A DNA stretch of 64,000 nt from Siphonodentalium dalli. Lineage: Eukaryota; Mollusca; Scaphopoda; Gadilida; Siphonodentaliidae. The stretch spans positions 255,203,582 to 255,267,581 of the forward strand of contig CP136061.1 in assembly GCA_032622095.1 (NCBI GenBank). Direction: 5' to 3'. The notes under the pieces are model-generated. The model ran no database searches and was not told the DNA's origin. It saw only the letters and a list, made by a program, of their open reading frames with translations. This document shows positions 1,550 through 63,980 of this stretch, piece after piece (position 1 is the first letter of the stretch; each line of letters begins with the position of its first letter). A program made the translations under genes and the position numbers.

Positions 1550-1551
1550 TA

Positions 1552-2195: not shown

Positions 2196-2199
2196 TTAA

Positions 2200-3584: not shown

Positions 3585-4127
3585 GGTCTATCCTCTCCAA
3601 ACCGGACCCTCTATAAACCAAATCCCTCGCCATACCGGACAATTTGTCTAGTCCCGAATTCACCCAAGTGCATTCTCATGAAAAAATTACCTCTATAATC
3701 TGGTAACTCTATATCCCAAACATCGGATGGCTTTTCTAGTCCATAAGTGAACAAATACATGAATTTTTACCTCCGAAATACAAACACGCTTATTCAACAG
3801 TATGAAACTACAATACATGCGCTACATTAATATTTTCAGCAACATTTTCGAATCACCGTAAAATATATCATTTACAGTCTTATCTATATACCGGTACATG
3901 TGTTATGTACCACATTTTATTTCTTATTATTTATCTATGTTATTTATATTTTATTCGGTAATTTATTCAAGTTAAATTCAATAATGACTTGGTTGTGCTT
4001 TGACCACTCTTAGTAACGACGTCAATACATTCCGGTCGTAGTGCCATTTTCTATAAAGCGAACACCTCTCTAAACCGAACAGAAGGGCCGGTCCAAAGTG
4101 TTTTCGGTTTGGAGAGGTTTTACTGTA
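3585..4127. mobile_element. Tigger/pogo-like MITE
   Basis: The right end at about 4093-4127 read inward is CAGTAAAACCTCTCCAAACC, followed by TA. The left end at about 3590-3612 has the matching CCTCTCCAAACCGGACC. Such ends are typical of Tigger/pogo-derived elements. The body is non-coding. Confidence 0.65.
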
Positions 4128-4199
4128 TTATTCTTTTGGTGGGATGTTTAATAAGGTGGTAAAAGCAGACGACAGATAAATAAAAGGTCAGCAGACCAC

Positions 4200-4728
4200 A
4201 GTGTCCCCCGAAAACGTGGCAAGTCGATGCCGCTTTGTTGAAGAAATTTTAAAAACTGTTGAAATTATCTAAGTTGAAAAGGGTTAATAACTCCGTAAAA
4301 AAAAAACATTTCCGTCATCTATATACATGTTGCACATCTCCAATATGTGGGTAACAATACTCTGAAGTTTCAAATATCTACGATCAAAACTGTAGGAGGA
4401 GTTGATTACACCACGAAGTTACCCTCATACAGAAAATTATAAAAAAAGGTGAAATTTTCTAAGTCGAAAAAGTCGAAAAGGGTTAATAACTCCATCAAAA
4501 AATAATTTTTCCATCATCTATATGCATGTTGCACATCTTCAATATATGGGCAACAATATTCTGAAGTTTCAAATCTCTGGGATGAAATCTGTAGGAGGAG
4601 ATGATTACACCATGAAGGTACTCAAAAGTGTGACGGACGGACGGCGCGTACAACGGACCGATTGAACGGACGGACGGAGCCCGTTTCTATAGTCCCCCAA
4701 AAATAAATTTTTCGGGGGACAATAAAAG
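4200..4728 (+). mobile_element. Helentron-like non-autonomous element, CCCCCGAAAA type
   Basis: The 5' end has TGTCCCCCGAAAA. The 3' end is a hairpin with AGTCCCCCAAAAATAAATTT and TTTCGGGGGACA, then AATAAAA. Between them are two diverged core repeats starting near AAAAGGGTTAATAACTCC, then a GGACGG-rich stretch. The 5' arm is complementary to the 3' hairpin arm, as in Helentron-associated elements. Confidence 0.65.
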
Positions 4729-4776
4729 TGCAGTAAGATCTCAAAATTTATTGAGGGAAAAGTTTACGGTCGTATG

Positions 4777-4976
4777 TTGAACTTATTATCTGAACATCTC
4801 CTACATCAATGATGTATAGAAAGGGTTAAATTATGCTTACTTGAACTTATTATCTGAACATATCCTATGCCAATGCTGTATAGAAAGGGTTAAATTACAC
4901 TTACTTGAACTTATTATCTGAACATCTCCTACATCCATGATGTATAGAAAGGGTTAAATTATGCTTACTTGAGCAC
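4777..4976 (+). repeat. Tandem repeat, three 64-bp units
   Basis: Units start at 4777, 4841 and 4905, with a partial fourth at 4969. Each contains ACTTATTATCTGAACAT and GTATAGAAAGGGTTAAATTA. A single diverged unit occurs near 33080-33190. Confidence 0.85.
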
Positions 4977-5009
4977 ATTAACATAGAAATCTTACACAAT
5001 TGATAATAC

Positions 5010-5280
5010 AACCAAAGAGGAAGTAAAGACACCTTCCAGAAAAAATATAGCTCCATTTTAAATGTGTCTTTTCATGTTGACAGAATTGTTCAACCACTCT
5101 TATCACACAGTCAACACTAAATATCCCAACACACAAATTGAATATCATAATTATATTCTAATTAACAAAATAATAACATTGATCAATATCATTGCACTAT
5201 GGTCTTACGTCACTGCGCGTGCCGATAATACACGTGTGTCTTTCTAAAAAATAAGAGGCCGGGTTTAGGGGCTAATTTTG
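5010..5280 (+). repeat. Uninterrupted copy of the 1940-2720 repeat
   Basis: Collinear with 1940-2195 plus 2680-2720, but lacks the family B MITE. It therefore shows the approximate pre-insertion site. Confidence 0.8.
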
Positions 5281-5593
5281 TGATATATTTCCATATCTAA
5301 TACATGTGATATACTATGTCCATAACTTCGTTGGAACAGTAATGGGGTTCATATTTTCATTTTTAAGAAACCTAAGAGGGAACAGCACCAGATGTCCTTT
5401 GACGTTTTTGAGCATTGATTTTGCTTTTGGAATATCTGTGTCGACGAGTGGAATCTCTTGTTTATAATGTGTGAGATCAGTGAACGATGCGACGACATCA
5501 TTAGGAATACAATGGAAGACCTAAAAAAGAAAAAATAGAAAATATAATGTATGCTGTGACTGTCCCAGTGGGACTATTGATACCACCGAAGGG

Positions 5594-6126
5594 CAAGCCT
5601 TGAAATAGTGTGTCTGTCATTTGCAGAATGAGGTCCCCAGAGGGTGAATTTAGTGATGCTACCCCGCATAGTGGGCTAGCATCACCAAATTCACCCTCTG
5701 GGGACCTCATTCTGCTTACACCTCAGCAGAATGAGGTCCCCAGAGAGTGAATTTAGTGATGCTATCCTGCAAGGGCTAGTGTCACCAAATTCACCATCTG
5801 GGGACCTCATTCTGCTTAGGCCTCATCTTCTCTGGAAAGTTTCTTTATTATCAAATTTCTAATGAAACTTCTTCACATGGATTCTATTTCTTTTTTAGTT
5901 TAGTTTCTCTATATCCCCAAATTGGCAGACGACACATTGCATAATCAAAGTTCCCAATGGGTGTACATTACAATATTCACCATTTGGGAACTTCAATTTG
6001 AGTCTTTGTCTCCCATAGCAGATGAGGACATGCAGAATGAGGTCCCAAGAGGGTGAATTTGGTGATGGTAGCCTGCCTTCTGGGGACCTCATTCTGCAAA
6101 TGACAGGCACACTAAACTAAGGCTTG
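5594..6126. mobile_element. Composite fold-back element, GAATGAGGTCCCC family
   Basis: It starts CAAGCCTTGAAATAG and ends with AAACTAAGGCTTG. It contains two complete palindromes (5625-5713 and 5727-5815) with arms GCAGAATGAGGTCCCCAGAG. Then come a linker with a different palindrome around GTTCCCAATGGGTG (5950-5995) and a third, shorter palindrome (6032-6098). No clear target duplication was found here, unlike related copies. A similar large form in the other orientation lies at 33330-33770. Confidence 0.75.
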
Positions 6127-12751: not shown

Positions 12752-13133
12752 CCCTTTACCCAACAGAAGGGCCCTGTGCCAATGCATTCTCTTATATATG
12801 CGAGTCGACCATAGGTCGCCTCGCATATATAAGAGAATGCATTGGCTTAACACATTAAAAATTATAAAATTGTTAAAGAATGTAAGAAAAAATGGTAAAA
12901 AAAGATTTTTTTTTAGGCCAATGCATTCTCTTATATATGCGAGGCGACCTATGGTCGACTCGCATATATAAGAGAATGCATTGGCACAGGGCTAACTGTA
13001 ACTATCACAATGTGGTCAAGGAGCCGGTTCCAATGATATCCATATTTGTATGGTTCTATTGAGACAGACCGAAGATATTTTAGGCTGTTGCAGCTTTATT
13101 TGGCCGATTTTGGCCGTTTTGTTGGGTAAAGGG
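12752..13133. mobile_element. piggyBac-like MITE, family A, complete
   Basis: TTAA at 12748-12751 and 13134-13137. The ends are CCCTTTACCCAACA and TGTTGGGTAAAGGG. Two hairpin modules lie at 12779-12846 and 12917-12985 around an A/T-rich spacer. The right part carries AATGATATCCATATTTGTAT and CAGACCGAAGATATTTTAGG, which are constant in the family. Confidence 0.9.
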
Positions 13134-13344: not shown

Positions 13345-15427
13345 AGCTCAACTATAAAGGGAATAATTTCATGTGTTGAAGTCAATGGAGTGAGTAGGAA
13401 TGTGGAAAGTTGAAAGGCCTAGTTATGCAAAGAGTAAAATCTAAGATGGCCGCTGGCAGCCATGTTTTTTTGCCAAATGACCCCAAAAAGACTCGTTCCC
13501 ATTTACATGGCATTATTAACATCCAGTACAAATTTCATGATGATATGACAAATGATACGACCTGTAGCCTGTGTCAAAGGATTTAGTCATGCAAAGAGTA
13601 AAATCCAAGATGGCTGGTGGCAACCATGTTTTTTGGCCAAATGACTCCAAAATGAATAATTCCCATCTACATGTCATTGTTAACATCCGTAACAAATTTC
13701 ATGAAGATCTGACCAAAGCTACGACCTGTAGGCTGCGCCAAAGGATTTAGTCATGCAAAGAGTTAAATCCAAGATGGCTTCTGGTGGCCATTTTTTTGGC
13801 CGAATGACCCCAAAATGACTCGTTCCCATCTACATGTCAATATTAACATCCATGACAAATTTCATGATGATCAGACGAGCAGTATGACCTGTAGCCCGCA
13901 CCAATGGATTGAATTTTGAAATCCAAAATGGCGGCTGGTGGCCATGTTTTTTGTCGAATGACCCCAAAATAACTCGTTCCCATCTACATGACAATGTCAA
14001 CATCTATGACAAATTTCATAAAGATCGGACCAAAGGTACGACCTGTAGCCCGTGCTAATGGATTGAATTTTGAAATCCAAGATGGCCGCTGGCGGCCATG
14101 TTGTTTGTCCGAATGACCCGAAAATGACTCGTTACCATCTACATTCCAATTTCAAAAGCCATGACAAATTTCATGATGATCAGACTAAAGGTACGACCTG
14201 TAGGCCGTGCCAAAGAATTTAGTCATGCAAAGAGTAAAATCTAAGATGGCTGCCGGTGGCCATGTTTTTTGGCCGAACAAACCCAAAATTACTCGTTCCC
14301 ATCTACATGTCAATATTAATATCCATGACAAATTTCATGATGATCAGACAAACAGTACGACCTGTAGCCCGTGCTAATGGATTGAATATTGAAATCCAAG
14401 ATGGCCACAGGCGGCCATGTTTTTTTCCCGAATGAACCCAAAATGACTCGTTCCCATCTACATTTCAATGTCAACAGCTATGACACATTTTATGATGATC
14501 CGACCAAGGGTACGACCTGTAGGCCGTACCAAAGAATTTAGTCGTGCAAAGAGTAAATCTAAGATGGCTGCCGGCAGCCATGTTTTTTGGCCGAATGACC
14601 CCAAAATTAGTCGTTCCCATCTGCATGTCAATGTTAACATTCATGACAAATTTCATGACGATCAAACAAAAGGTATGACCTGTAGCCCGTGCTAATGGAT
14701 TGAATTTTGAAATCCAATATGGCCGCTGGCAGCCATGTTGCTTGTCCGAATGACCCGAAAATGACTCGTTACCATCTACATTCCAATTTCAACAGCCATG
14801 ACAAATTTCATGATGATCAGACTGAAGGTACGACCTGTAGCCCATGCTAAAGGATTTAGTCATACAAAGAGTAAAATCCAAAATGGCTGCTGGCGGCCAT
14901 GTTTTTTTGCCGAATGACCCCAAAATGATTCGTTCCCATCTACATGTCATTGTTAACATCCATGAAAAAATTTATGATGATCAGACCAAAGGTACGACCT
15001 GTAGGCCGTGCCTAAGAATTTAGTCATGCAAAGAGTAAAATCTAAGATGGCTGCCGGTGGCCATTTTTTTTGGCCGAACAACCCCAAAATTACTCGTTCC
15101 CATCTACATGTCAATATTAACATCCATGAAAAATTTCATGATGATCAGACGAACAGTACGACCTGTAGCCTGTGCTAATGGATTGAATATTGAAATCCAA
15201 GATGGCCACTGGTGGCCATGTTTTTTTCCCAAATGAACCCAAAGTGACTCGTTCCCATCTACATGTCAATGTCAACAGCTATGACAAATTTCATAATGAT
15301 CCAACCAAAGGTACGACCTGTAGCCCGTGCTAAAGGAAATTTTTGACGCATCACGCACACACACACGGACGACGGACGACAAAGCCATGGCAATAGCTCA
15401 AACTTTACAAAGTAAAGTTGAGCTAAA
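13345..15427 (+). mobile_element. Helentron/pearl-like element with a 12-unit core array
   Basis: Twelve diverged units of 152-170 bp, each with CATGACAAATTTCATGATGA-like and TACGACCTGTAG motifs, run from about 13440 to 15345. Two unit types are mixed: one has GGATTTAGTCATGCAAAGAG, the other GGATTGAATTTTGAAATCC. The array ends in GACGGACGAC, then the hairpin TAGCTCAAACTTTACAAAGT / AAAGTTGAGCTAAAAA. The 5' end (13345) has TAGCTCAACTATAAA, one arm of the same hairpin. A second copy of the 5' end only (AAAGTGTCAATGACACTG) lies at 15808. Confidence 0.75.
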
Positions 15428-19469: not shown

Positions 19470-19525
19470 GGCAGCATTAAATATCCTGTTCCAGTGCATT
19501 CTCCAATAGGGAGCCTCGCATATAT
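19470..19525. mobile_element. Left fragment of a family C MITE split by the composite insertion
   Basis: GCAGCATTAAATATCCTGTT, then CCAGTGCATTCTCCAATAGG, stops inside a hairpin at CGCATATAT. The missing half resumes at 32121 (ATAAGAGAATGCACTGGC). Confidence 0.75.
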
Positions 19526-19558
19526 GATATTTTTAAAATATAATATATATTTCCTTAA

Positions 19559-19922
19559 CCCTTTACCCAACAAAACGGCCAAAAACGCCCAAATAAAGCT
19601 TCAACAGCCTAAAATATCTTCGGTCTGTCTCAATAACACCATACAAATATGGATATCATTGGAACCGGTTCATTGACCACATTGTGATGGTTACAGTTAT
19701 GCCCTGTGCCAATGCATTCTCTTATATATGCGAGTCGACCATAGGTCGCCTCGCATATATAAGAGAATGCATTGGCCTAAAAAAATCTTTTTTTAACACT
19801 TTTTACCATTTTTTCTTACATTCTTTAACAATTTTATAATTTTTAATGTGTTAAGCCAATGCATTCTCTTATATATGCGAGGCGACCAATGGTCGACTCG
19901 CATATATAAGAGAATGCATTGG
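19559..19922. mobile_element. piggyBac-like MITE, family A, right end missing
   Basis: TTAA at 19555-19558, CCCTTTACCCAACAAAACGG and both hairpin modules are present. The element stops after the second hairpin at CATTGGC and runs directly into the 92-bp inverted repeat at 19927. Confidence 0.85.
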
Positions 19923-19926
19923 CATT

Positions 19927-20018
19927 GGTCGCCTACCATTGGCTTGCTCGGAATCAAGTCATGCATGCGCAGTCCCAATATAACTCACTTTACAGATTGA
20001 ATTCGTCAGTTTATTTTC
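19927..20018 (+). repeat. Left copy of a 92-bp inverted repeat
   Basis: GGTCGCCTACCATTGGCTTG through CGTCAGTTTATTTTC, nearly identical to the complement of 31943-32033. Confidence 0.85.
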
Positions 20019-21439
20019 AACTCAAATCAGAAGATTGGCGAGTTGAGGGGTTGGGAATGGCACCGCCATGGGAGGGCCCTATGATAGTTCAGTGTTCAGG
20101 CTTTCTTTAAGGAAATATATATTATATTTTTAAAAATATCAAATTTCCGCTAAAGGAAGCCTTTCACACTGAACTATATGGATTAGAATGCAAGCCCAGG
20201 AGGAGACACGAGCAATAAAGTTAATAGCCAAATTTTTGAGGGAATGCACTCTTCTAGAACAGATTGTACCTAAATATGAACTCTTTAATGAATCTGTTAT
20301 GATTAGTTACGTGAAATAACTCATATAATTAGAGTGCTATATTGCTCAAACATGTACCCCCCCCCCCCCTTGTTTTTGGAAGCAACATCCCAGGTGGTGC
20401 CATTCAACTCAGAATTTGCGAACGAACCGAGCAATTCTCTTTTCTTCATCCGTCAGTTCTAAGAGTCCAGCCGATTTGAGATGCGAGGAGACTATAACTC
20501 CCTCTCCGCCTTAGCGACATAACGACCTGCACTGGAGGAGGCCCACTCCGAAGATGGCAAGACAACCAACATTAAGAGTTAACTAACTGCTGTTCGCCAA
20601 TGCAAATGGCAGATAACCTGATGTCCAATCTGTGGCACAGGGATCAAATGGAGAGCCCATTAGCCCAAATGGGTTAGACAACTATAAGCGAGTCAAGCCA
20701 TCGGATCAGAGGGAGCCCCCACCATCGCATGCTGCAGGTGGTCATGCCCAAGCTAATATCCTGGCCAAGCTGGAGGGTGGGAAGAGGTCATTTTTCTCCG
20801 ATCCCTTCACGGAGGAGTGGCAGGCAAGGCCGCTTTTTGTCGTTAAGACGAGCGTGGCCAGGGGGACGCGGCGCTTTACCTCATGGGTACGGCCCCTGCC
20901 CTACACTTAAGCTGCCGGAGGCCCATCTGCCGGTGTCGATTTGTAGGCATGCGATTTGGCAGCTTTAGCGCCCAGAAACGCTGGCGTTTGGTGGGGGACA
21001 AATGTCCTGGAGGTCCCAAGTACCCCGTCTTCTCCACCAGACGTTTCCCCCCAGACTGATTGTACCGCCGAGGCGTAATTGGAGGAGCGTGAACTGGTCC
21101 TGCCCTTAGAACAGTTATCACACGTTCACATGTCTCTGAGGTACCTATGTATCACAATATACACATTGCGTATATATATATATAAAATGATATAATATAT
21201 ATATCCGGGGGATATATATATTAAGTTTTCCTCATGAGACCATGTCAGAAGGCCCTACCAAAGCTGCGCCCATCAATCCAATGGTCGGAGCCAGATCACA
21301 GCTCCCTGTCATGATCCAACGTATCACTAAATATAGATATATAACACCACAGAGAACATGTCGCATGTCTCTGAGGTACCTATGTATCACAAGATATCAT
21401 TGCAGAAACCCGGTGATACAAATCTTTCGCATATATAGA

Positions 21440-21755
21440 TATATAAATAGAGAGTAATCAATTAATTCCGAGAATTACGTTAAATAATTCACGAGAGGCG
21501 AGAGACGTCGGTAAGAAATATAATTTTTATATTAAAATTAGTTTTTCCTCAAGGGAAGCCCGAAACTGAACTATATGGATTATTATCCTCGGCCTTGTGT
21601 TATCAGGAGGGTTAAAATTTATTGTCCGTTTATTAGCCTACTCCGGTCAATCAGCGACTCCGGTCAATCAGTGCTCGGATTAGCTCACGCATGGATGCGT
21701 CCCGTGCAAATCTCGCTCTCTTAACAATTCATCTAGCCAGTTTTATTTCCGACTT
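21440..21755 (+). repeat. Left copy of a ~310-bp inverted repeat
   Basis: GAGTAATCAATTAATTCCGA through CATCTAGCCAGTTTTATTTC; the complement is at 28192-28510. The copies differ just before GAAGCCC: here ATTTTTATATTAAAATTAG, in the other TCGTGCGCTGAGGCGCAC. Part of it (21541-21850) is also bounded by inverted CCTCAAGGGAAGCCCGAAAC. Confidence 0.8.
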
Positions 21756-22289
21756 TTAATAGTAAGATTTGCGAGTCGCGGGGTTGGGAATGGCACCGCC
21801 ATGGGAGGGATCTATGATAGTTCAGTTTCGGGCTTCCCTTGAGGAAAAACTAATTTTAATATAAAAATTATATTTTTCCGCCAAGGAGAAGCCCTTCAAC
21901 TGAACTATATGGAATAGAATGCAAGCCCAGGAGGAGGCAACGAGCAATAAATTTAATATTCCAGTTTGACGGGAATGTACTCTTCCAAACAGATTTCATG
22001 TAAATGTGATTTAGTCATGAATCGGCTTTGATATGTTATGTGAAAGAGCTCATAAATTCATATTCCAGCATTGCTCAAGCTTGTACCTCCCCCCTTGTCT
22101 TTTGGAATAAACATCCCAGGCAGTGCCATACCATACGTGCCAGCTATTAGTAGAAACCGAGCAGTAGAGACTTCTTCTTCTGCTGCTGCTTTTCTCTCGT
22201 GTCCTGCGATGAGAGTGATGGCAATATTTACTATTTATATCTTCCCAAATAGAAAGCGCTATAGACGGTACGCGACAGCGAGTCTTCCT

Positions 22290-23230
22290 CACACAGAACA
22301 GCCTCCAAAGGCTCGGGTGCTATTGTCCCAGAGGATTGGTTGCCCGAATCTCCGAGAACGGCACTCTGCCTGCCACGGTCTGCTGATGCAGGACCAGGGG
22401 GCGCGAACTGGTACAGCCCAAGGACTGGTACAGTTGTGCAAAGTTTGTGTAATACATTGTAACAAGATTTGACACATATCCTGTGATGAAGTTTTTTCCA
22501 AGAGATCGACCCGTGTCGTGTCCGTACGCAAAGCGAGTTCCCTAGGAACGACAGAATCCTTGACTGACAGTGGGAACCACCGTCGGCCCGAGATCCTTGC
22601 TCATCGTCGTCAAAGCCATCAGACGCCAGGAGAATTATAGAAACTAGAAAGCATGTCAGGATCGACGCCAGCAACAGAACAGCCTGCATCAGGTTGAGGT
22701 AAGGTACTAGAGGGAAGCCCACACTGGGAATGGCTCGAACGAGGAACAATTGCGCTCGCAGTTAGATTTTAAGGTGTTATTTCCCACCCCAAGGCCAAAA
22801 TGGCGGAAAAAAGGGAAATTGAAAGGATCCATTTGACCAGGGAAAGCCCCCCACCGAATCTCCCAAATGCAGGTGGTCCCGACACGCTGACATAAACGTC
22901 GATGACATACCACTAGGATCCCCTGACGGCAGAGGAGCAGGCCTGGACGTATCACTTGGGATGACGTTTCCAGGGGGACAAGACCGACCCTCGTAATGGA
23001 GTGGGCCACGGCGCCGTGGGGAAGCGTCAGAAGGCCAGTTGGCTAGTGCGCTTCCCCACCCAGAACAGTCGCCAAAGGCGCGGGTGCTTGTGTCCTGGAG
23101 GATTGGTTGCCCGAATCTCCGGAGGACGGTACCCTGCCTCCCACGGTCTGCAGAAGACGGGGCTTGCAGCATGACCAGGGGGGACCGAATGGTTCCTGCC
23201 CGAGTTAAGACTGGTACGTTTGCTCAAAAT
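22290..23230 (+). repeat. Pair of direct GC-richer repeats
   Basis: 22312-22440 and 23063-23220 share AGGATTGGTTGCCCGAATCT, CTGCCTCCCACGGTCTGC-like and GACTGGTAC blocks. The open frames in this stretch overlap in several frames and have no recognised family, so I do not call genes. Confidence 0.6.
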
Positions 23231-24189
23231 GTAAAACCATGGACCAATGGGCCCTCAACCAACTAAGACAATATCGCGTAAATTCATGAGCAACCCGTAC
23301 GGCCATCAAAGTCGAATCTCGTTCGACAATAAGCAAGACAAGACATTCTGTTAGTTATTAGCAAGCATAATATACAAAACATTTGTTAGTTATTGCAAAA
23401 CAAGGTTAATAAGGTAAATTCCGTTATTTACGATGGCCACGTGATCTTACCTGCTTGAAATTAAACCGCAGGTAAGATACTGTCTTTTCTCGGCGAAGAG
23501 GACGATGAGATCCGATTTCTCCTGTGCAAGAACATAGCGGAGTCCTTGCTTACGGTGAGGAGAACGTTTTATACACTTACAGAAAGTCCGCAGATGGTGG
23601 AGCAGGCCTGGAATATCCCGAGGGAGTATGATTCCAGGGGGACAAGACCCACTCACGTAATGGAGTGGGCCACGGACCGTGGGGAAGAGTCAGAAGTCTC
23701 AGTCCTTCCCAGGAGACAGGAGCAATTGTTCACGCAGCCTTAAGCAATTGTAATTTTCTAATTCACGAATATTAAACTGTGCACTGTTCCCTCTTGACAG
23801 AAGGTGCATGGTCATAGTAATCATTTATTCAATATTAAACTATTGGAAGGTATATATAAAATCGTTCCCATCGCAGTTAAATTATGGGAATGTGAAAGTG
23901 CCATGGAACATGCATGTTATGAGGTCTATCCCACAATGACATTGAATTTGAGAAAAACACAACTGATGATTATACAGGCGCAAGTACATCCGTCTTCTGA
24001 ATTGCAAGAGCAAATGAGAGCTCGAGCTGCGGTTACATCTGGGAAGAACTGAAGTCTGGTTGGCTGGTGCGCTATTAGTGGCACATGATGAGTCTTCCCC
24101 ACCCTAAGGCTCAGGAGCTGTGGCATTCGCCCTTGAAGATTTGTTTTCCAAATCAACGATGGTAGCACCCCGCCAGTCACTGGTACTGG

Positions 24190-24905
24190 GCAGTGGTCAT
24201 GCACAATATAAAGGCTTCTTTGGGAACGGCGCTTTATATGTGTGATGATACAAATGCTTTCATTTGTGTTATTCATATAGGTTTTCTATTTACCAGATAA
24301 TCATGGATACGTAGTAATAGAAAGAGAAGAGCCATGTTTTGGACTCTTTTGAAATTGGCACTGGCAGGCCTGCCGAATGCAAAATAAATCTGAAGCCGTA
24401 ACGTATTTGTCGGTTGTCTGGTTGTGCTTAGGTACCCATAGGTACACAAACTGTTAAATTCAGTATCACGAGAGCCACATACAACTTTGACGCGACCTAG
24501 ATTTCACAACCTCCAGGTGAACCGAACCGTCGTTCGCCTCCAATACGCAGGCCTGCAGTGGTTGTGCGCAATATAAATAGAAACACTGTTCATGTAACTG
24601 CACTTTATATGTGTGACAATACAAATGCTGTCCTTTCTGTTATTTGCCCGATAATCAATTGGATATGAGGCAATAGAAGGAAAAGAGCCATGTGTTGGTC
24701 TCTGATGGAAATTATAGTGGCAGCGGCGCTGCGCAATATAAATGCATTTCCTGTAACTGTGCTTAATACATGAATGAAGGCTATTTGACATTTGATCTGT
24801 CTATGTGGAAATAGAAGGTAGAGAGCCAAGTGATGGACTCTGTTGGAAAGGCTATTGACAGTGCATCGGGGGCACATGACAATATAAATGCATAGTAGTT
24901 CACCT
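24190..24905 (+). repeat. Dispersed ~170-bp repeats, CAATATAAATGC type
   Basis: Three or four diverged copies (24195-24350, 24545-24700, 24720-24860, 24870-24905) and another at 29750-29905. Each carries CAATATAAA, a run like CTTTATATGTGTGA, CCAGATAATCA and AGAGCCATGT. The role is unknown. Confidence 0.6.
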
Positions 24906-26301
24906 TGACTATTCACGGATTGAAAGCGCAGAAGTATGTCGGTATCAGTGAAAATTTACGCCATATTGATATAGTCAGTTCGTATGTCATTGAGCCTTTG
25001 AGGCACTGATACCCTTGTACTAGTATGGAACAATTATGGCTGGCCATACATGTTTTTAAGCTCACCATTTTGTATCATTTAAATTCGTAATTTGAATGTA
25101 TCTACAAACACTAATATCTGAGGATAACAGTTCAGATGTTGTCTATTTGTTACAGTGAACACGTGGAAATGTCAAACATCAAAATCATCAAAAGTATAAA
25201 CATTGTTGACTGAAAATTTATTGAGACACTGGCTAGCCAATGAATCATTTCAACACTGCGACCATGCTAGGTCACACGGATATGGTGACATGCCACAAGT
25301 ACTGTCAAGTAGGCCAGCCAAAGGCTCGCATCCCAAATTTCTCCAAAGAGATCTGACCACGGACGGAAGTATCCTTGGATATTTAAGCAAACTATAGCTG
25401 AAGGTTCAGGCTACTGCATTTGCATATCTGTGCAGTCATCGAACAGGGAAGTCCATTCTGCAAAATACTATGTTATAACAAACATAATCTCATTGTTTCT
25501 AACGATTGTTCCGATAATACAATGAGGGAAAGGAAATGGAATCGCAAGAACAGAGTCAGAGTTTCAAATAAATATCTTGAAGTCGATGTAACGTTTGCGA
25601 CGTTCCAAGTATCCAAATAAGAGCCATCATGTTAATAGTAATACATTCGGGCTAGCTAAGATATGCAAAAATTAATCGGTAAGCACAATTAATTATAACG
25701 ACATGTTGTATATGTACAATGATGTTCTGTGATAATCATTTACCAAATGTCGGTTAAGTTCCAGTCGCTCAACTTCAACTTACAATTGAAGTAGTTGAGG
25801 CAAAAGAAATTTCATTGGATTACAAGTTCTATCTTGTTTATTAATACATGTAAATTATCGCCAAAGGAGACATTTCTGTCCTGGCCAACTTTCTGCGCAA
25901 TAACAGAGCTGTTGCAGATACGATTATGTAGTGTACATGAAATGAACGTAGCAAGAAGTCGGCATCATGAAATATAGTTAGCACGAAATTAGGAGACTTC
26001 GCATACCGTACCACGTGGACTCAGAAATCGGACGATTCATGCCACCGTATATGTTGCACAATAATGCAAAATAGGTTCGCTACAAGTAAACGATGTGCGT
26101 CTGTAGTCATTGTCAAAATGGCCATCAATGGCGAAGTTCACAACGTGATTTGTTGTTGTTGTTGGCATCATAATCATCTGTAGCTGATTAATGTCACTGG
26201 TGCATTAACTGCTGGTGCTGTATTCACTAGGTGCTATACTCTGTATGTGTGACGTCTTCTATCTGGTAAGGGAGAGTTATATACATATATAAAATCATTG
26301 T

Positions 26302-28119
26302 TTAGACACTGATGCCTGAAGATCTGACAAAGTTGTGGACAAGTTTATGTCGAAGAAGTTCTGTATCTGCTGACAGTCCTTCGCATTGCCCGAGGAGAAG
26401 TTTTATTGTTTTGCCGCTGTCATTTATAGAATCCTGGAGTTGCGGACTTTCGGTGAGATCAGAAAACAGTATGTCCCTGTACCCTTGGTTTAAGCTGCAG
26501 TTGAGAATGTAGTGTAGTATAGTTCCTTGTTCACCACAAGAGCATTTCGGTGTGGCTACAAGATTCATTTTGAACATATGCTCATTTAGGAGAGTGTGAC
26601 CTAACTTGAGTCGGTTAACTTTCACCTCCGTGGCTCTGTCAGAGAATGAGAATTTGGTAGGCTTCATACCAGTTATTGGAAACAATTCTTGAGTGTGCTG
26701 TGAAGTTTTACAAAGGTCCCACGAGGTTTGCCACTTACATTTAACAGAGTCCTTTATTGCATTTTTATGTTCTTTGAAAGAGTTCAGATTAGAGTGATCT
26801 GTGAAAGAAGCTTGCGGGACAGTAGAAGCTGCTTCTTTTGCTGCAATGTCTGCCAAATCATTACCCGTAATGTTAGTATGACCTCTCATCCATTTCAGAA
26901 TAACCCTGGATCCCGTTTCATTAAAAATATCATTTATTAGAGAGTTACATGCACGAGTGTGATCTATGTGACCTTTATAATAGTCTCGATTGTATATTGT
27001 CTGTAACGCACTTTTTGAGTCACTGATAACAATGGTTGCTACAGATAGCTTTTTTGTTTTGACAAACGATTTGGCATATATTAGACCCAGTCTTAGTCCA
27101 TAAAGTTCAGCATTGAGACTGTCATCAGAAGATTGAACAGGTTCACTTATGATAACCGGATCGCTGAGTAGGCCACTAGTGTATATAACGGCAGCAGAAC
27201 CACTGTGTCCATTATTTAGCACTGATCCGTCCGTAAAAATAATCAGGTCTTTTCCACCTGTGCTCTGTAGGAATTTACAGTTATCATTACTTTCGATGTC
27301 TAGAGATGCTGCTTGAGATGTATTACTAGAGTTTGGTACAGTTTCAGGAGTTGAGTAGATGGCGTAAGTGCAGAAATCGTCACTTTCAGGGAGATATATT
27401 GGTTCTTTTTCTATAGAGCCGAGTTTGTTACCCAACAGATATTTTCCAAAGGAATAGAGTTTTGCCATGGGAGTGTTTTTGTTGGGAAATAGCATGGCAT
27501 TGTTTAACATTAGTTTTAATTGAGAGTTGTCGGCTTTCCGAAGGATGCGGAGATATTCGGTGGCGGCTATTTCTTTTAGTATAAGAGTTAGAGGTGTAGT
27601 GTTTGTTATCACTTCCATAGAAACAGTACTTGTAGAAGACAGAGCACCAGTCGCTCTGATCAAAGCCGATCTTTGTGCACTTTCAAGTTTGTTTAACTGA
27701 GAATCATTTATTGTGCACCATACTGGGAATCCATAACTTAGGATCGGAATAACAACTGCCTTATATAGTTTTATGGCTTTCTCCGTACTCACTCCGGTAG
27801 GATTTACGAGTTGGCCTATCCTGTTCATAGCACTTGCAGCTTTGCTTATGGTTATACCAACGTGTTCCTTATATGATAAATCTCTGTCTATGGTGATACC
27901 GAGAAGTTTTTTTGAAGGTACTTGTTTCAGATAACCCTTGTCAAGCTGAATTTTGTCGATTCCAATTCCAAATTTTTTTGAGATAAAATGGGTCGATAAA
28001 AACACGGAATATTTATAAATAGCGTTGCGCATACTATGAAACGAAGAGTTTCTGCGCGAACTTATAAATATGAAACGACCGGGTAAGCAACGGATAAATT
28101 GCAAGTTTGTGATCAACAA
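26302..28119 (-). CDS. Non-LTR retrotransposon ORF2 fragment: end of reverse transcriptase plus RNase H
   Basis: The 605-codon open frame is the longest in the window. From about residue 62 it reads like the thumb end of a non-LTR reverse transcriptase (LLGITIDRDLSYKEHV at 72-87, VIPILSYGFPVW at 123-134). A complete RNase H domain follows: TDGS with Asp 297, ELYG with Glu 338, SDSKSAL with Asp 367, and GHTNITGNDLAD with His 414 and Asp 421/424. A Cys/His cluster (CSCGEQGTILHYILNC, about 529-544) lies near the end, as in elements of the I/R1/Jockey-like groups that carry RNase H. The palm with YADD, the endonuclease and ORF1 are missing, so the copy is 5'-truncated. The first ~60 residues probably come from adjoining DNA. 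The frame is intact, which suggests recent insertion. Confidence 0.9.
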   Translation of the reverse strand: MLITNLQFIRCLPGRFIFISSRRNSSFHSMRNAIYKYSVFLSTHFISKKFGIGIDKIQLDKGYLKQVPSKKLLGITIDRDLSYKEHVGITISKAASAMNRIGQLVNPTGVSTEKAIKLYKAVVIPILSYGFPVWCTINDSQLNKLESAQRSALIRATGALSSTSTVSMEVITNTTPLTLILKEIAATEYLRILRKADNSQLKLMLNNAMLFPNKNTPMAKLYSFGKYLLGNKLGSIEKEPIYLPESDDFCTYAIYSTPETVPNSSNTSQAASLDIESNDNCKFLQSTGGKDLIIFTDGSVLNNGHSGSAAVIYTSGLLSDPVIISEPVQSSDDSLNAELYGLRLGLIYAKSFVKTKKLSVATIVISDSKSALQTIYNRDYYKGHIDHTRACNSLINDIFNETGSRVILKWMRGHTNITGNDLADIAAKEAASTVPQASFTDHSNLNSFKEHKNAIKDSVKCKWQTSWDLCKTSQHTQELFPITGMKPTKFSFSDRATEVKVNRLKLGHTLLNEHMFKMNLVATPKCSCGEQGTILHYILNCSLNQGYRDILFSDLTESPQLQDSINDSGKTIKLLLGQCEGLSADTELLRHKLVHNFVRSSGISV

Positions 28120-28191
28120 TAAATATTGAGTTGATAAACTCGCAATAGAGAAATACTTCCTTTAGTTAAAACCACGTCTGATAGGTCCAAG

Positions 28192-28510
28192 GAGAGAAAT
28201 AAAACTGGCTAGATGAATTGTTAAGAGAGCGAGATTTGCACGGGACGCATCCATGCGTGAGCTAATCCGAGCACTGATTGACCGGAGTCGCTGATTGACC
28301 GGAGTAGGCTAATAAACGGACAATAAATTTTAACCCTCCTGATAACACAAGGCCGAGGATAATAATCCATATAGTTCAGTTGAAGGGCTTCTCCTTGGCG
28401 GAAAAACGAGTGCGCCTCAGCGCACGAGTTTCTTACCTATACGTCTCTCGCCTCGAGTGAATTATTTAACGTAATTCTCGGAATTAATTGATTACTCTAT
28501 TTATTACACT
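28192..28510 (-). repeat. Right copy of the ~310-bp inverted repeat
   Basis: Complement of 21440-21755, starting 73 bp upstream of the retrotransposon open frame. Confidence 0.8.
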
Positions 28511-28724
28511 CATGCATCAATTTGGTTTGCCAGATATGATTAAAGCACACATAATTAATGCATGGAAATTCCGATGTGGAGAAAGATCAACCATCGAATA
28601 TTCAGTCTAGATCAGTAAGCGACGTAACGTCAATGACGTCACGATAAATGACATAATTCACTAGTGACATTAACATTTTTAATTAACAGGATGTTCAATG
28701 GAAATCGCGCATAGGAGTGTATTA

Positions 28725-28910
28725 AAATGATATAATAGATATATCATGGTGATATATAAGTCATCATGAGATCATGTCATAAGACCCTACCAAAGCTGCG
28801 CCCAACAATCCAATGGTCGGAGCCAGAGCAGAGATCCCTGGCACAATCCAATGTATCATTAAAGATATATATATAGCCCCTCAGAGAACATGACTAACAG
28901 CCATGAGTAT
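28725..28910 (+). repeat. Direct copy of 21185-21370
   Basis: Both contain CCCTACCAAAGCTGCGCCCA and CAATCCAATGGTCGGAGCCA in the same orientation, with a TATATATC-rich lead. Confidence 0.8.
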
Positions 28911-28999
28911 CGGGAGCGCATGGCCGAACACCGCAGGTGACCAGAGCATCCAATGAGAAAGCAAACCGCTACTCTCAGGTGCCAAATAATAATGTCGGT

Positions 29000-31940
29000 A
29001 CAATTATTAATTTTGTAGAAATTTCCCAACGATCACCATCCTTTGGAATGGAAATAGACAGCAAAATGTGCAATCACAAGTATTATGTTCAGCCTAAATC
29101 CACACACATTACTATTATTAGGCCATCACGACCACTAGGCACCTGAGAGCAGTCCACGTTCCCAGCGGAATACCCACCGCGATCCGATTCAAAGAAATGA
29201 AGGTGCGCCTTCTACAACTGAAATCAGTTCAAATGATGTACAATGTAGTCAGATGATAAACACAGGTAAATTTTCACGGTCACCATACGGAATATTCAGG
29301 TCTGAGCCTCTGCCCCCCCAAACATGCAGCAGAACGACCTAGATGTGTGATAGATCGGTTAGTGTGAAGCATGCAGCAAACTAGGGGAAGACCCGCTCTA
29401 AAAATGGCTCCCCTAGGAAGGAAACGAATGAAATTATCATTCTCCTAGTAAAGGATACACATCCCTTTTATAATGTTGTTTTATTTTTAATTTGAAGAGC
29501 CAAGATAGAGAGGAACTCCCCCTACCTAAGTGGTCCTGCTTAAGGCATGCTTAAGGAAGAGAGGACAAATCCAGCATAGACCAAAATGCGCAGAGTTGGC
29601 AGCATGGTTTCAGGCCCTTACGATCGGGCATCTGGTGCCATGGGGATGGGATCCACTCGTACGGGGTGGTCCCCTGCCTGCATCTTAGGAAAGGTCGGTA
29701 ATGCTGGTTAATGAGCTTCCTCGAAAGCTTAGAAGGACAGCGCAAACGTCTTTGCCTGTTTTATTGTCTATGTGCCAGATAATCAAATTGATATGGGCAA
29801 TAGAAGTATGAAGAGCCATGCTGATGGACTCTTGTCGGAAAGGCTATTGGCAGTGGTCGTGGGACACGTGACAATATAAATGCTTTCCATGTAAATATGC
29901 TTCATTCGTGTGTGAAGACTATTCGCCATATCAACTGTATGAAAGGTCGGGACACGTATATATTTGAAAATTCATTGAGACTCCAGCTAGTCCATGAATA
30001 CCTTCAAAACGCCTACCATGCCCTTTATGGACAATGCATGCTGTATTGGATGTACAGCCTGTTCTTGTACCAAGCTCACATTTGATATGGTTACTTGCCA
30101 TAAATAATGTCTCCCCCCACCTTCCTCATCTTGGAATACCACTGGTATTATATCGTTATTCATTGGGGAACGTCATCCAGGCCACGGTCGCCAGTTATTG
30201 ACAGTGGGCCAGTTAACTGGAGGGGTCAAGTCACCACGATTCTAAATACCTGTCAGGCTGGAATCATTCTCATAATTGAATCAAGAAGGGGAAAGTTTTT
30301 TTAATCCAAAGTATCTTCAAATATATTTGTAGATATTGAAACCATGATTAAACACCGTCAGAGTGATGATAAGCTTCTTCCCTTACTCTAGAGAATGCAA
30401 ACCGGAGCACCCCTGATTTGTAATTTTGTGTCCCAATTAGAGCCATATCCCGAATCGTAGTAACCCAACCCCCACCGCTTCTTTTCGGTAAACCTGAACA
30501 GGAAGTATAGCAATTATGTTTGTATTCCGGAAGGAGACACCATTTAGTCGAGAAACAACCCAGCAATTTTGAAAGGATGGGTTAATTTTGGATACAATTC
30601 AGAACAATAACTAAAATCTGGAATTGAGACAATAGTGAAACTGTCATCATGATTAATTTTAGTGTCATGCTTGCAATCATTAAATGCTAGCAGTTCAAAA
30701 TTTGACAGTGAAGTTGAAGCACTGTACGAGAATCAAATCATGTACTCAACAGAATTCTGACTCTTGTCAGATGTCAATCCCTGTCTGAAATTAATGACAC
30801 TAACGAATATTAGTACGACAGTCATTATTTTTCTGATATTGATAAACTGTAGTCAACTTCAAGCGTCGACAAACACATCTAGATCATAGGAGACATGTGT
30901 GACAGTATTGAAACAGAAAACACAAAGTATTTTGTGAAAGCATGTTGTTTTGATGAGTTCTAATGACTCCAGTAGTGTTCTTTAACATGCACATGGTGTG
31001 TACATGGGTCAGCCATTAAGTTTTAATTGTCCACACCCGATCGCACAGCGTAGTGCACCCACGACAACATACCTGAACAAGTGTTGTAATGGGGAAAGTC
31101 GGCATTTGCATTCGGATTTTATTCAGTAATCTCGAATGGTACTTTTTAGCCTGACAAACTTGGTATCGGACCGAGTTCTGATTTCTGTCAGAATACCCTG
31201 ACCAGGGTGCGATCCCCGGTCCGCTAGCACATGGCTGAGATTGTTACATTGAAGTTGATGCTCCGTTACGAGAATCAAACCATGAACAGAATTATAACAC
31301 TTGTCAAATATCAATCTCTGTCAATTTATTAAAGTAATAATGACACTACTGTTATTCTTAGGTACCTGTTTTTACATTGATTAACCAAGATGTAATCAAG
31401 TTTAAGTTCAAATGTGACCAACACATCTGGATCAGTTGTATTGAACCATAAAACAACAAAGTATTATGTGAAAGAATGTTGTTCATAACATTATGATAGA
31501 TAGCGTCAGTAGCGATGGTAATTATTGCTAAATAAATGTCCACGCGTAAATAAATTCCCACGAAATTAGGCGACTTCCGGTAGCGAATCACGTGGCATTT
31601 TTTATATCTGACAAATTATATCATACCTTATAGGTGCTATAATAATTACATAGATGTATTGCTCACAATAATCTATGCGCCTCGTAAGGCCTTGAAATGA
31701 CGGCAGATTATGGCGAAATGTCGATTTTCATATTCGATAAATTTTAAGTCCGCCGCCTGTTCGAAAACACGGACAATTGTATGTTTGAAGCGAAACGGTC
31801 CGTGAATTCGAAACAATAATTCTAAAAACGAACGCGTAGGCGACCAGTAATTATTGTATCGATAAATTGAATTTGTTGTCTAGTTGTTAAACGACAAATT
31901 CGGAACAATACTCCCTTTAGACTTCCGTTCGGTTTCGTAG
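29000..31940. other. Inside of the composite insertion, mostly unrecognised
   Basis: Apart from one CAATATAAATGC-type repeat (29750-29905), I see no gene or element. The paralogous stretches 30770-30975 and 31300-31480 (ATCTGGATCA-like, AAAACACAAAGTATTTTGTG) look like a diverged direct repeat. Confidence 0.4.
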
Positions 31941-31942
31941 CA

Positions 31943-32033
31943 GAAAATAAACTGACGAATTCAATCTGTAAAGTGAGTTATATTGGGACTGCGCATGCGT
32001 GACTGATTCCGAGCAAGCCAATGGTAGGTGACC
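31943..32033 (-). repeat. Right copy of the 92-bp inverted repeat
   Basis: Complement of 19927-20018. Beyond it, 32082-32120 is the complement of 20142-20181 (CACTGAACTATATGG). Confidence 0.85.
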
Positions 32034-32120
32034 AAAAAAGTTAACCCCTTTCTATTATGGTTTACAAACGCAGGACATATATCCATATAGTTCAGTGTGA
32101 AAGGCTCCCTTTAGCGGAAA

Positions 32121-32255
32121 TATAAGAGAATGCACTGGCTTGCAAGGTCAAATTAAATATTGTTAGGCCAATGTACTCTCTTATATATGCGAGGCTCCCT
32201 ATTGGAGACTTATATATGTGAGACCCTATTGGAGGAAGCTCCTGTCATGGAATGG
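32121..32255. mobile_element. Right fragment of the split family C MITE
   Basis: It resumes the hairpin at ATAAGAGAATGCACTGGC. It has the second module (AGGCCAATGTACTCTCTTAT) and ends AAGCTCCTGTCATGGAATGG followed by TTAA. Confidence 0.75.
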
Positions 32256-32261
32256 TTAACT

Positions 32262-34431: not shown

Positions 34432-34879
34432 CCCTTTACCCAACAAAACGCCCAAAAAAAGCTTCAAACAGCCTAAAATATCTTCGGTCTGTCTCAATAA
34501 CATCATACAAATATGGATATCATTGGAACCGGTTCATTGACCACATTGTGATGGTTACAGTTATGCCCTGTGCCAATGCATTCTCTTATATATGCGAGTC
34601 GACCATAGGTCGCCTCGCATATATAAGAGAATCCATTGGCCTAAAAAAATCTTTTTTTAACACTTTTTACCATTTTTTTCTTACATTCTTTAACAATTTT
34701 ATAATTTTTTCTTACATTTTTTAACAATTTTTATAATATTTTTCTACATTCTTTGACAATTTTATCATTTTTAATATGTGTTAAGCCAATGCATTCTCTT
34801 ATATATGCGAGGCGACCTATGGTCGACTCGCATATATAAGAGAATGCATTGGCACAGGGCCGTTCTGTTGGGTAAAGGG
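34432..34879. mobile_element. piggyBac-like MITE, family A, complete, long spacer
   Basis: TTAA at 34428-34431 and 34880-34883; ends CCCTTTACCCAACA / TGTTGGGTAAAGGG; two hairpin modules. The spacer carries a partial duplication of TTCTTACATTCTTTAACAAT. Confidence 0.9.
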
Positions 34880-38796: not shown

Positions 38797-39131
38797 CCCT
38801 TTACCCAACAGAAGGGCCCTGTGCCAATGCATTCTCTTATATATGCGAGTCGACCATAGGTCGCCTCGCATATATAAGAGAATGCATTGGCTTAACACAT
38901 TAAAAATTATAAGGCCAATGCATTCTCTTATATATGCGAGGCAACCTATGGTCGACTCGCATATATAAGAGAATGCATTGGCACAGGGCATAACTGTAAC
39001 TATCACAATGTGGTCAAGGAGCCGGTTCCAATGATATCCATATTTGTATGGTTCTATTGAGACAGACCGAAGATATTTTAGGCTGTTGAAGCTTTATTTG
39101 GCCGGTTTTGGCCGTTTTGTTGGGTAAAGGG
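38797..39131. mobile_element. piggyBac-like MITE, family A
   Basis: TTAA at 38793-38796 and 39132-39135, two complete hairpin modules separated by a shortened spacer. Confidence 0.9.
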
Positions 39132-42706: not shown

Positions 42707-42994
42707 CCCTTTACCCAACAAACCGGCCAAATAAAGCTTCAACAGCCTAAAATATCTTCGGTCTGTCTCAATAAAACCATACAAATATGGATATCATTGG
42801 AACCGGCTCATTGACCACATTGTGATGGTTACAGTTATGCCCTTTTTTTAGCATTTTTTCTTACATTCTTTAACAATTTTATAATTTTTAATGTGTTAAG
42901 CCAATGCATTCTCTTATATATGCGAGGCGACCTATGGTCGACTCGCATATATAAGAGAATGCATTGGCACAGGGCCCTTCTGTTGGTTAAAGGG
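42707..42994. mobile_element. piggyBac-like MITE, family A, first hairpin lost
   Basis: TTAA at 42703-42706 and 42995-42998. The left part is normal to ACAGTTATGCCC and then jumps to the T-rich spacer. Only the second hairpin remains. Confidence 0.88.
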
Positions 42995-45780: not shown

Positions 45781-45837
45781 ACTTTTATATAGTTTCATTA
45801 ATTGTGTTTCAAGATACACCTCAAAAACTAATGTTAA

Positions 45838-46058
45838 CCCTTTCATGACGGGAGCTGCGCTGGTGCAGCATTAAAGATCCTGTGCCAATGCATTCTCATA
45901 GGGAGCCTCACATATATAAGAGAATGCATTGGCTTAAAAGGACAAGGTAAATATTGTTAGGCCAATGTATTCTCGTATATATGCGAGGCTCCCTATGGGA
46001 GACTCGCATATATAAGAGAATTTTCTCAAAATTTCAGGAAGCTCCAGTCATGGAAGGG
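45838..46058. mobile_element. piggyBac-like MITE, family C
   Basis: TTAA at 45834-45837 and 46059-46062; CCCTTTCATGACGGGAGCTG left end and GCTCCAGTCATGGAAGGG right end; two hairpin modules, the first shortened. It lies 128 bp from a Pld exon. Confidence 0.9.
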
Positions 46059-46185
46059 TTAAACTATTAAAACACAACAATTCGCCTGCTATTACAAAAT
46101 GTTGAATATCATCACACAGGCTCCAACTACTGCATTTACTGAGAAAAATACACCGGCTTTATAATTAAACCATTAGCAGGACAAC

Positions 46186-47548: not shown

Positions 47549-47672
47549 TAATAGGTATAAGTTTAGGTGATAGGCTGATACGGTATCATCAGTAGAAGGT
47601 GTTATTTGTTAGCTGAGCGGCGAAATTCCAATAACTTGATATTGATATTGCAAACGCCTTGAGGACCATTAA

Positions 47673-48109
47673 CCCTTTACCCAACAGAACGGCCCTGTGC
47701 CAATGCATTCTCTTATATATGCGAGTCGACCGTAGGTCGCCTCGCATATATAAGAGAATGCATTGGCTTAACATATATTAAAAATGATAAAATTGTCAAA
47801 GAATGTAGAAAAATATTATAAAAAATGTAAGAAAAAATTATAAAATTGTTAAAGAATGTACGAAAAAGTGTTAAAAAAATATTTTTTTTAGGCCAATGCA
47901 TTCTCTTATATATGCGAGGCGACCTATGGTCGACTCGCATATATAAGAGAATGCATTGGCACAGGGCATAACTGTAACCATCACAATGAGGTCAATGAAC
48001 CGGTTCCAATGATATCCATATTTGTATGGTGTTATTGAGACAGACCGAAGATATTTCAGGCTGTTGAAGCTTTATTTGGGCGTTTTTGGCCGTTTTGTTG
48101 GGTAAAGGG
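47673..48109. mobile_element. piggyBac-like MITE, family A, complete
   Basis: TTAA at 47669-47672 and 48110-48113, both hairpin modules, and the longer spacer seen in 34432-34879 (but in the opposite orientation). Confidence 0.9.
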
Positions 48110-63976: not shown

Positions 63977-63980
63977 TTAA

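What the first reader, a model, noticed from the sequence alone, without database searches (positions are those of the whole stretch)
19526..32120. A 12.6-kb insertion of unknown type with inverted ends and an intact RNase H frame
It splits a MITE hairpin, so its limits are roughly known. It holds nested inverted pairs (92 bp, about 310 bp), several direct pairs and joints where two termini appear to meet (20085-20185 and 21812-21900, each with GATAGTTCAG on one side and CTGAACTATATGG on the other). These joints look like end-to-end fusions of copies, as from a circular or dimeric intermediate. The only recognisable protein is a truncated non-LTR fragment, which may be a passenger. This is the best candidate for an undescribed large element in the window.
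Basis: partly seen in the sequence, partly recalled or inferred. Interest (0 to 1): 0.75.

Follow-up and report, generated by a model that had tools for sequence, protein, structure and literature searches.

The report
Nested non-coding DIRS1-like retrotransposons
The 12.6-kb insertion is two nested copies, one old and one very young, of a jumping-gene family that carries a mirrored copy of its own two ends, as DIRS-type retrotransposons do, but appears to have no genes of its own.

Summary
The insertion is real, but it is not one new 12.6-kb element. An old ~5.3-kb element split a MITE at ATAT. It later took in a 370-bp MITE and a young ~5.5-kb relative (21516-28406), which itself holds a 1.8-kb 5'-truncated LINE fragment. 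The RNase H frame lies in that LINE.

The young family is on all nine contigs of the 2.2-Gb assembly: nine fetched copies match a tenth at 98.4-99.5%. A terminal 17-mer occurs 3074 times (control 0).

With inverted terminal repeats and duplication-free insertion, this is the ITR/ICR architecture of DIRS1-like tyrosine-recombinase retrotransposons. In 11 of 11 copies both genomic junctions fit one crossover between the predicted circle junction and an A-rich target; paralogous uninterrupted repeats match two predicted targets exactly.

Six-frame Pfam scans and comparison of diverged subfamilies show no coding capacity, so the family looks like a non-autonomous DIRS1-like lineage. DIRS-type recombinase genes exist in the genome, but none with matching termini was found: the partner is unproven.

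The parts
19471..19525 (.). Left half of the MITE split by the old element
   Evidence: Matches 45865-45917 at 89%; joined flanks restore the MITE
19526..19554 (-). Outer (old) element: 3' tip with right extension, cut off by the nested MITE
   Evidence: 19522-19558 is inverted to 20144-20107, the left arm of the ICR, at 94.7%
19555..19924 (.). Nested 370-bp double-hairpin MITE inserted in the outer element
   Evidence: 97% to 52357-51988, 94% to 13137-12777
19925..20018 (-). Outer element: conserved ITR part, 3' copy
   Evidence: 97% inverted to 32035-31943
20084..20183 (-).
   Evidence: Left arm inverted to the 19526 tip; right arm 20143-20183 inverted to 32121-32081 at 97.6%
20184..21442 (-). 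Outer element body, GC-richer part, no coding capacity found
   Evidence: 19960-20403 is 76% to 21690-22129 of the inner element; no Pfam hit here in six frames
21443..21515 (.). Left arm of a palindromic repeat that was the target of the inner element
   Evidence: Inverted to 28440-28504; predicted target GGTAAGAAACGAGTGCGCC
21516..28406 (-). Inner (young) non-coding DIRS1-like element; 5' end at 28406, 3' end at 21516; contains the LINE fragment and lacks ~400 bp near 25468
   Evidence: Three aligned pieces at 98.9-99.1% to the 5.5-kb element at G000:C9:45000550
21516..21574 (-). Inner element: 3' tip (divergent ITR plus right extension)
   Evidence: 59/59 identical to the reverse complement of 21817-21875
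21564..21749 (-). Inner element: conserved ITR, 3' copy
   Evidence: 186 bp, 100% inverted to 28196-28381
21817..21916 (-).
   Evidence: Each arm matches the corresponding own terminus
26152..27942 (-). 5'-truncated non-LTR (LINE) fragment with RNase H domain and (CAA)n tail, absent from the C9 copy
   Evidence: PF00075; insertion breakpoints against the C9 copy
28196..28381 (-). Inner element: conserved ITR, 5' copy
28363..28406 (-). Inner element: 5' tip
   Evidence: Inverted match to 21873-21916, 97.7%
28407..28504 (.). Right arm of the palindromic target repeat
28505..31942 (-). Outer element body, 5' part
   Evidence: 29769-30021 matches inner element stretches within 24641-25267 at 72-83%
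31943..32035 (-). Outer element: conserved ITR, 5' copy
32081..32121 (-). Outer element: 5' tip (its last bases overlap the target ATAT)
   Evidence: 97.6% inverted to 20143-20183
32120..32259 (.). Right half of the MITE split by the old element
   Evidence: Matches 45914-46062 at 81%

Best explanation
The segment consists of nested insertions of one non-coding, DIRS1-like retrotransposon family. Each unit (~5 kb) is bounded by inverted terminal repeats. About 240-300 bp inside its 3' end it carries internal complementary regions, the reverse complement of its own two ends fused. Proposed cycle: the transcript lacks its extreme ends; a reverse transcriptase supplied by another element copies it; the ICR serves as template or splint to rebuild and join the ends into a circle; a tyrosine recombinase supplied in trans crosses the circle junction (GGCGG-AAAAA-TATAAT) with an A-rich genomic site, without target duplication. 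Shown here: architecture, tip-ICR correspondence in several subfamilies, insertions that fit conservative recombination, many near-identical copies, no detectable coding sequence. Inferred: the RNA intermediate, the circle itself and trans mobilisation. The old unit entered a MITE; it then received another MITE and a young unit, which received a LINE fragment.
For: Nine fetched copies align to the C9 copy over ~5.5 kb at 98.4-99.5%; mean pairwise substitution of the ten is 0.52%. The 424-bp 3' terminal query scored 40 places at a rounded 100% over 422-424 bases, window included, on all nine contigs (40 of 2006 candidates scored). Terminal 17-mer: 3074 exact sites, control 0. Of the first 100 listed sites, 60 form 20 ITR-ICR-ITR triples, 13 of them 4.8-5.4 kb. 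In six elements compared, each tip is more like its own ICR than like the opposite tip, wherever both words were available; right tip to right ICR is 1.00, 1.00, 0.92, 1.00 in the four elements where it could be scored, against 0.58-0.72 for opposite tips. Circle-junction crossover solution in 11 of 11 copies, all compatible with one position. Two predicted targets matched exactly by uninterrupted paralogous repeats. Besides the LINE RNase H, no Pfam domain in six frames of the segment; one sub-threshold match only in the element nested in L029. Between subfamilies, indels of length divisible by 3 are 26/123, 17/118, 20/115 and 1/27, with no clear codon periodicity. DIRS1-like definition from passages of PMC3266345.
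Against: No autonomous partner with matching termini was found. Of two coding loci examined behind Dam hits, one shows direct repeats as in PAT elements (L045, seen by eye; best core-like match at 3 edits), the other has no exact ACTGAACTAT core in the 280 bp fetched after its recombinase frame (two matches at 2 edits). Nine recombinase or Dam places on C1:0-89 Mb all lie over 130 kb from the listed motif sites. The left-tip words include 9-11 flank bases and discriminate poorly: own left ICR is tied with another subfamily's for L031 and L029, and in the L029 insert the left ICR is closer to the right tip (0.81) than to the left tip (0.78); in L030 the two are equal (0.72). The ICR junction is identical in the 11 copies, so only the flanks are independent. 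The old copy shows a 4-bp ATAT overlap while its present ICR reads ATTT (one mismatch). In one search, 4 of 10 flanks had no relative spanning the junction and 4 of the other 6 were not decisive. An RNA intermediate was not tested.
Confidence: 0.82

Rival explanations
1. A tyrosine-recombinase DNA element (Crypton-like) that moves by excision and re-insertion of a DNA circle, with no reverse transcription; the internal palindrome would be a recombination or regulatory site.
For: Junctions fit crossover without duplication; the genome holds a high-identity family of 646-aa recombinase frames (L033-L044).
Against: It gives no reason for an internal reverse complement of both own ends, nor for that copy to follow the diverging right tips in each subfamily. 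L033-L044 carry no CTGAACTATATGG within 2 mismatches in the ~3.3 kb held of each (12 of 12).
Confidence: 0.12
2. Two adjacent cut-and-paste elements: a 360-bp foldback MITE (X...X) beside a larger TIR element (Y...Y).
For: 21516-21875 has 59-bp perfect inverted ends, and 21873-28406 has 44-bp inverted ends. The copies fetched were chosen with a query that spans both parts, so they could not show the parts apart; 40 of the first 100 motif sites are not in triples.
Against: In the ten fetched copies the two parts lie together in the same order inside one pair of genomic junctions, and the 20 triples were found by the 17-mer alone. No consistent target duplication; junctions fit conservative recombination. 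The conserved ITR lies just inside both outer ends.
Confidence: 0.03
3. One reading: one undescribed 12.6-kb element with copies fused end to end.
For: Outer inverted ends and a single split MITE.
Against: The inner 6.9 kb is a separate young insertion with its own ends and target; the same ~5.5-kb unit lies alone, with different flanks, at ten other fetched places.
Confidence: 0.02

Closest known systems
DIRS1-like retrotransposons, including the mollusc elements AcaDIRS1/2 and LgDIRS1-3 (PMC3266345, passages only)
   Same: Length ~5 kb, inverted terminal repeats with divergent and conserved parts, right extension, two ICRs near the 3' end overlapping at an A/T junction, a ~10-nt word shared by both ITRs and both ICRs, no target duplication
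   Different: No gag, RT/RNase H/methyltransferase or recombinase frame detected; many near-identical non-coding copies; several diverged non-coding subfamilies
PAT-like and Ngaro retrotransposons
   Same: Tyrosine-recombinase retrotransposons of the same order; PAT-like elements seem present in this genome (L045 shows direct repeats behind Dam and recombinase frames)
   Different: Split direct repeats instead of inverted repeats with ICR
Non-autonomous retrotransposons that borrow enzymes, such as TRE5-A.2 of Dictyostelium (mentioned in PMC5633606, passages) and non-coding LTR derivatives (recalled)
   Same: Non-coding or reduced units that rely on proteins of a partner
   Different: Those belong to non-LTR or LTR families; the present family keeps the DIRS terminal architecture

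Membership tests
DIRS1-like retrotransposon | Inverted terminal repeats | tested here: met
   186 bp at 100% in the window; 202-column alignments at 96-98% in ten of ten copies
DIRS1-like retrotransposon | Two internal complementary regions matching the element's own left and right ends | tested here: met
   clear for the right side, less discriminating for the left side; L032's ICR not found by exact core
DIRS1-like retrotransposon | ICRs overlap on a short circular junction that matches the termini | tested here: met
   Junction GGCGGAAAAATATAATT; termini begin and end in T runs read in element sense
DIRS1-like retrotransposon | Right extension present in one terminus and its ICR only; ~10-nt word common to both ITRs and ICRs | tested here: met
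   About 26 extra nt at the 3' tip; ACTGAACTAT in all four places of the young family
DIRS1-like retrotransposon | No target-site duplication; conservative recombination | tested here: met
   11 of 11 crossover solutions; two exact uninterrupted paralogous targets out of 10 flanks tested; the old copy fits with one mismatch
DIRS1-like retrotransposon | Encodes gag, RT/RNase H/methyltransferase and tyrosine recombinase | tested here: not met
   Six-frame Pfam, tblastn with a recombinase of this genome, no coding signature. Therefore filed as non-coding with DIRS1-like architecture, not as a full DIRS1-like element
DIRS1-like retrotransposon | Moves through an RNA intermediate and circular cDNA | not testable with these tools
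   Needs RNA and cDNA data
DIRS1-like retrotransposon | Autonomous partner with the same termini in the same genome | tested here: inconclusive
   Recombinase and Dam domains exist, but matching ends were not seen in the little sequence that could be fetched nor near nine places on part of C1
Cut-and-paste TIR transposon or MITE | Fixed-length target-site duplication | tested here: not met
Ngaro/PAT retrotransposon | Split direct repeats | tested here: not met
   Terminal repeats are inverted

The most novel reading that the evidence does not exclude
A long-lived, wholly non-coding lineage of DIRS1-like elements exists, a counterpart for tyrosine-recombinase retrotransposons of what SINEs are to LINEs. 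It has diversified into subfamilies whose aligned pieces are often only ~65-80% alike but which keep ITR, ICR, junction and a repeated, strongly conserved ~100-nt internal motif (possibly a packaging or priming signal), and it has reached several hundred to about a thousand copies (extrapolated from 3074 motif sites) while borrowing enzymes from a DIRS or PAT element with different-looking ends.
Probability: 0.5. Interest if true: 0.68.

Novelty: new variant of a known kind. Interest (0 to 1): 0.52.

Why it matters
The passages read on DIRS-1 call ICR-templated end repair and integration a proposed mechanism, experimentally not fully proven (circular cDNA has been shown in one Dictyostelium mutant strain), and suggest an element lacking the ICR as a test (PMC5633606). 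A genome with many young, non-coding, ICR-bearing copies is a natural experiment: tips can be checked against ICRs, and junctions against the predicted circle, at very many sites. It also suggests that ~5 kb of non-coding DNA with DIRS-type ends can spread widely, and that such families would be missed by searches with RT, MT and YR profiles such as the one in PMC3266345 (inference).

Tried and rejected
Considered and dropped: foldback or composite TIR transposon (no target duplication); Helitron (recalled features do not fit); hairpin-telomere or concatemer junction (flanks of the joint are not the ITRs); a coding element with unknown genes (no coding signal between subfamilies). Rfam and tRNA scans of the window gave nothing. 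A conserved ~100-nt repeated motif was aligned and folded on one strand: 13 predicted pairs, 0 with compensatory change; the other strand was aligned but not folded; no RNA structure is claimed. Protein search with the RNase H frame gave three relatives at 23-24% identity without names (7991 candidates scored); the host species was not identified. Pfam on L033 and L037 covered only the strand opposite to the recombinase. Nearness of the 79 sites to recombinase places was not computed. Literature: searches (listings) and passages of five papers; the phrase 'non-autonomous DIRS' gave 0 papers. The library lacks most subscription papers, and one recalled paper on DIRS cDNA is not held, so absence from print is not claimed.
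Full report
Observation. The 12.6-kb segment at 19526-32119 does split a MITE. Its flanks match the two parts of an intact relative at 45834-46062, and joining the flanks restores the MITE. The inverted pairs and both joints are as described. The longest exact inverted repeat is 186 bp against 13-18 bp in 20 resampled sequences.

Nesting. A search of the window's own assembly (2.2267 Gb, nine contigs) with 424 bp from 21516-21939 returned 40 places at a rounded 100% over 422-424 bases, the window included, on all nine contigs, plus weaker and partial matches (123 matches; 40 of 2006 candidates scored). Ten copies with flanks were fetched. Nine of nine align to the C9 copy over ~5.5 kb at 98.4-99.5%; mean pairwise substitution of the ten is 0.52%. 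The window's inner unit, 21516-28406, is one of these, with a ~400-bp deletion near 25468 and a 1.79-kb insertion (26152-27942). That insertion is a 5'-truncated non-LTR fragment with a (CAA)n tail and carries the RNase H domain (PF00075); about the first 59 residues of the 605-aa frame are flank. Removing this 6.89-kb unit and a 370-bp MITE (19555-19924) leaves ~5.33 kb. That remainder is an old relative of the inner unit: 19960-20403 is 76% identical to 21690-22129, and there are further interior matches. The 12.6 kb is therefore old unit + MITE + young unit + LINE fragment.

The joints. In both units the joint is an imperfect palindrome. Its left arm is the reverse complement of the unit's left tip in the window (59/59 in the young unit, 94.7% over 38 columns in the old); its right arm is the reverse complement of the right tip (43/44 young, 40/41 old). 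The same holds for other elements examined: L031, L030, the main element of L029, and a second ~4.5-kb family nested in L029 with different tips but the same core. In 36-nt comparisons the right tip and right ICR agree at 1.00, 1.00, 0.92 and 1.00 in the four elements where both words were found, while opposite tips of one element agree at 0.58-0.72. The left words include 9-11 flank bases, agree with their own ICR at 0.72-0.92, and discriminate less: for L031 and L029 the ICR of the young family scores equally, and in the L029 insert the left ICR is slightly closer to the right tip (0.81) than to the left tip (0.78). L032's ICR was not found by exact core and was not compared.

Comparison with DIRS1-like elements. 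The passages of PMC3266345 define ITRs with a conserved and a divergent part, a right extension, two ICRs at the 3' end overlapping on a short circular junction, a shared word of at least 10 nt, and no target duplication. These structural features are met. Two criteria, the ICR position and the extension, agree that the element reads on the minus strand. PMC9210276 passages report TTT at both ends of Xenopus DIRS-like families; here the termini also lie in T runs.

Insertion chemistry. With the circle junction predicted from each copy's own ICR, a single crossover explains both genomic junctions in 11 of 11 copies (ten fetched plus the window), and one position is compatible with all 11. The ICR junction is identical in these copies, so only the flanks are independent evidence. 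Uninterrupted paralogous repeats match the predicted target exactly at two places: GGC-AAAAA-TGTTCC in two of three units shown from L020 for the copy at C4:88.8 Mb, and GGTGAATATTGTG in L019 for the C6 copy (two other relatives shown differ). Of 10 flanks tested, 6 had a relative spanning the junction (up to three shown each): 2 exact, 4 not decisive; 4 had none. The inner unit's predicted target is itself a palindromic repeat, which explains the inverted flanks at 21443-21508 and 28440-28504. The old unit fits with one mismatch (target ATAT, present ICR ATTT).

Copy number and organisation. The terminal 17-mer has 3074 exact sites, reversed control 0. Of the first 100 listed sites, 60 fall into 20 ITR-ICR-ITR triples (loose limits: two same-strand sites under 1.5 kb apart, the opposite site under 16 kb away); 18 of the 20 have a joint-to-terminus spacing of 296-334 bp and 13 span 4.8-5.4 kb; the other 40 sites are not in triples. 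The pattern with C or G next gives 79 sites against 28 in the control.

No genes. Six-frame Pfam scans of the segment give only the LINE RNase H; the nested second family in L029 gives one match far below its cut-off. Between subfamilies (aligned pieces 65-89% alike), indels of length divisible by three are 26/123, 17/118, 20/115 and 1/27, and the strongest codon-phase chi-square in 300-base windows is 5.7 among 28 windows, no clear coding signal. A DIRS-type recombinase of this genome finds no remnant in any fetched copy (one hit at E 0.32, in a flank).

Partner. The genome has tyrosine recombinases (150 scored places; 137 matches to one DIRS-type recombinase, 135 of 1468 candidates scored) and Dam-type methylase domains in frames up to 1164 aa (25 matches, 150 of 240 candidates scored), as expected of DIRS/PAT elements. 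The sequence behind one such Dam and recombinase pair shows direct repeats by eye, PAT-like (L045). Behind another Dam hit lies a recombinase domain (PF00589, E 3.8e-9) with a broken end of frame, followed by 280 bp without the exact core (two matches at 2 edits). Nine such places on C1:0-89 Mb lie 0.13-2.9 Mb from any listed motif site. The partner is unproven.

Verdict. Best reading: a large, young, non-coding family with DIRS1-like terminal architecture, mobilised in trans. Shown: architecture, tip-ICR correspondence, junctions that fit conservative insertion, abundance, no detectable coding. Inferred: RNA intermediate, circle, trans enzymes. It is filed as a new variant of a known kind and not as a full DIRS1-like element, because the coding criterion was tested and not met.

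Noticed in passing
window 62136-63981: 98-bp tandem repeat, ~19 copies, 98% matches.
   Followed up: no
window 2237-2394, 12772-12991, 34562-34859, 38817-38992, 42896-42974, 47669-48113, 51959-52357: High-copy double-hairpin MITE with 69-bp palindromes (GCCAATGCATTCTCTTATATATGCGAG); one copy is nested in the outer element and relatives serve as insertion targets.
   Followed up: partly
window 13420-15337: 164-bp tandem array; a unit of the same repeat elsewhere is the target of one young element.
   Followed up: partly
L009 2018-2117 and 2705-2808; L029, L030, L031, L032: A ~100-nt motif repeated 2-5 times inside each non-coding element and better conserved (up to 94% between L009 and L029-L032) than most of the rest; no compensatory pairing found.
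   Followed up: partly
L029 about 1360-5877: A second, ~4.5-kb non-coding family with the same ITR/ICR architecture and ACTGAACTATATGG core but different tips, nested in a copy of the first.
   Followed up: partly
L033-L044: A recombinase family, open frames of 639-646 aa in 11 of 12 fetched loci (414 aa in one), pairwise 97.8-99.8%; in L040 it is the only sense-strand frame over 80 aa in the ~3.3 kb held; possibly Crypton-like.
   Followed up: partly
G000:C4:245917822 and C4:245922759: Two Dam-bearing frames 4.94 kb apart on one strand, each followed by a recombinase match, perhaps a tandem pair of PAT-like elements.
   Followed up: no
window 57092-58132 (minus): 346-aa open frame without a Pfam hit, possibly a host exon.
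   Followed up: no
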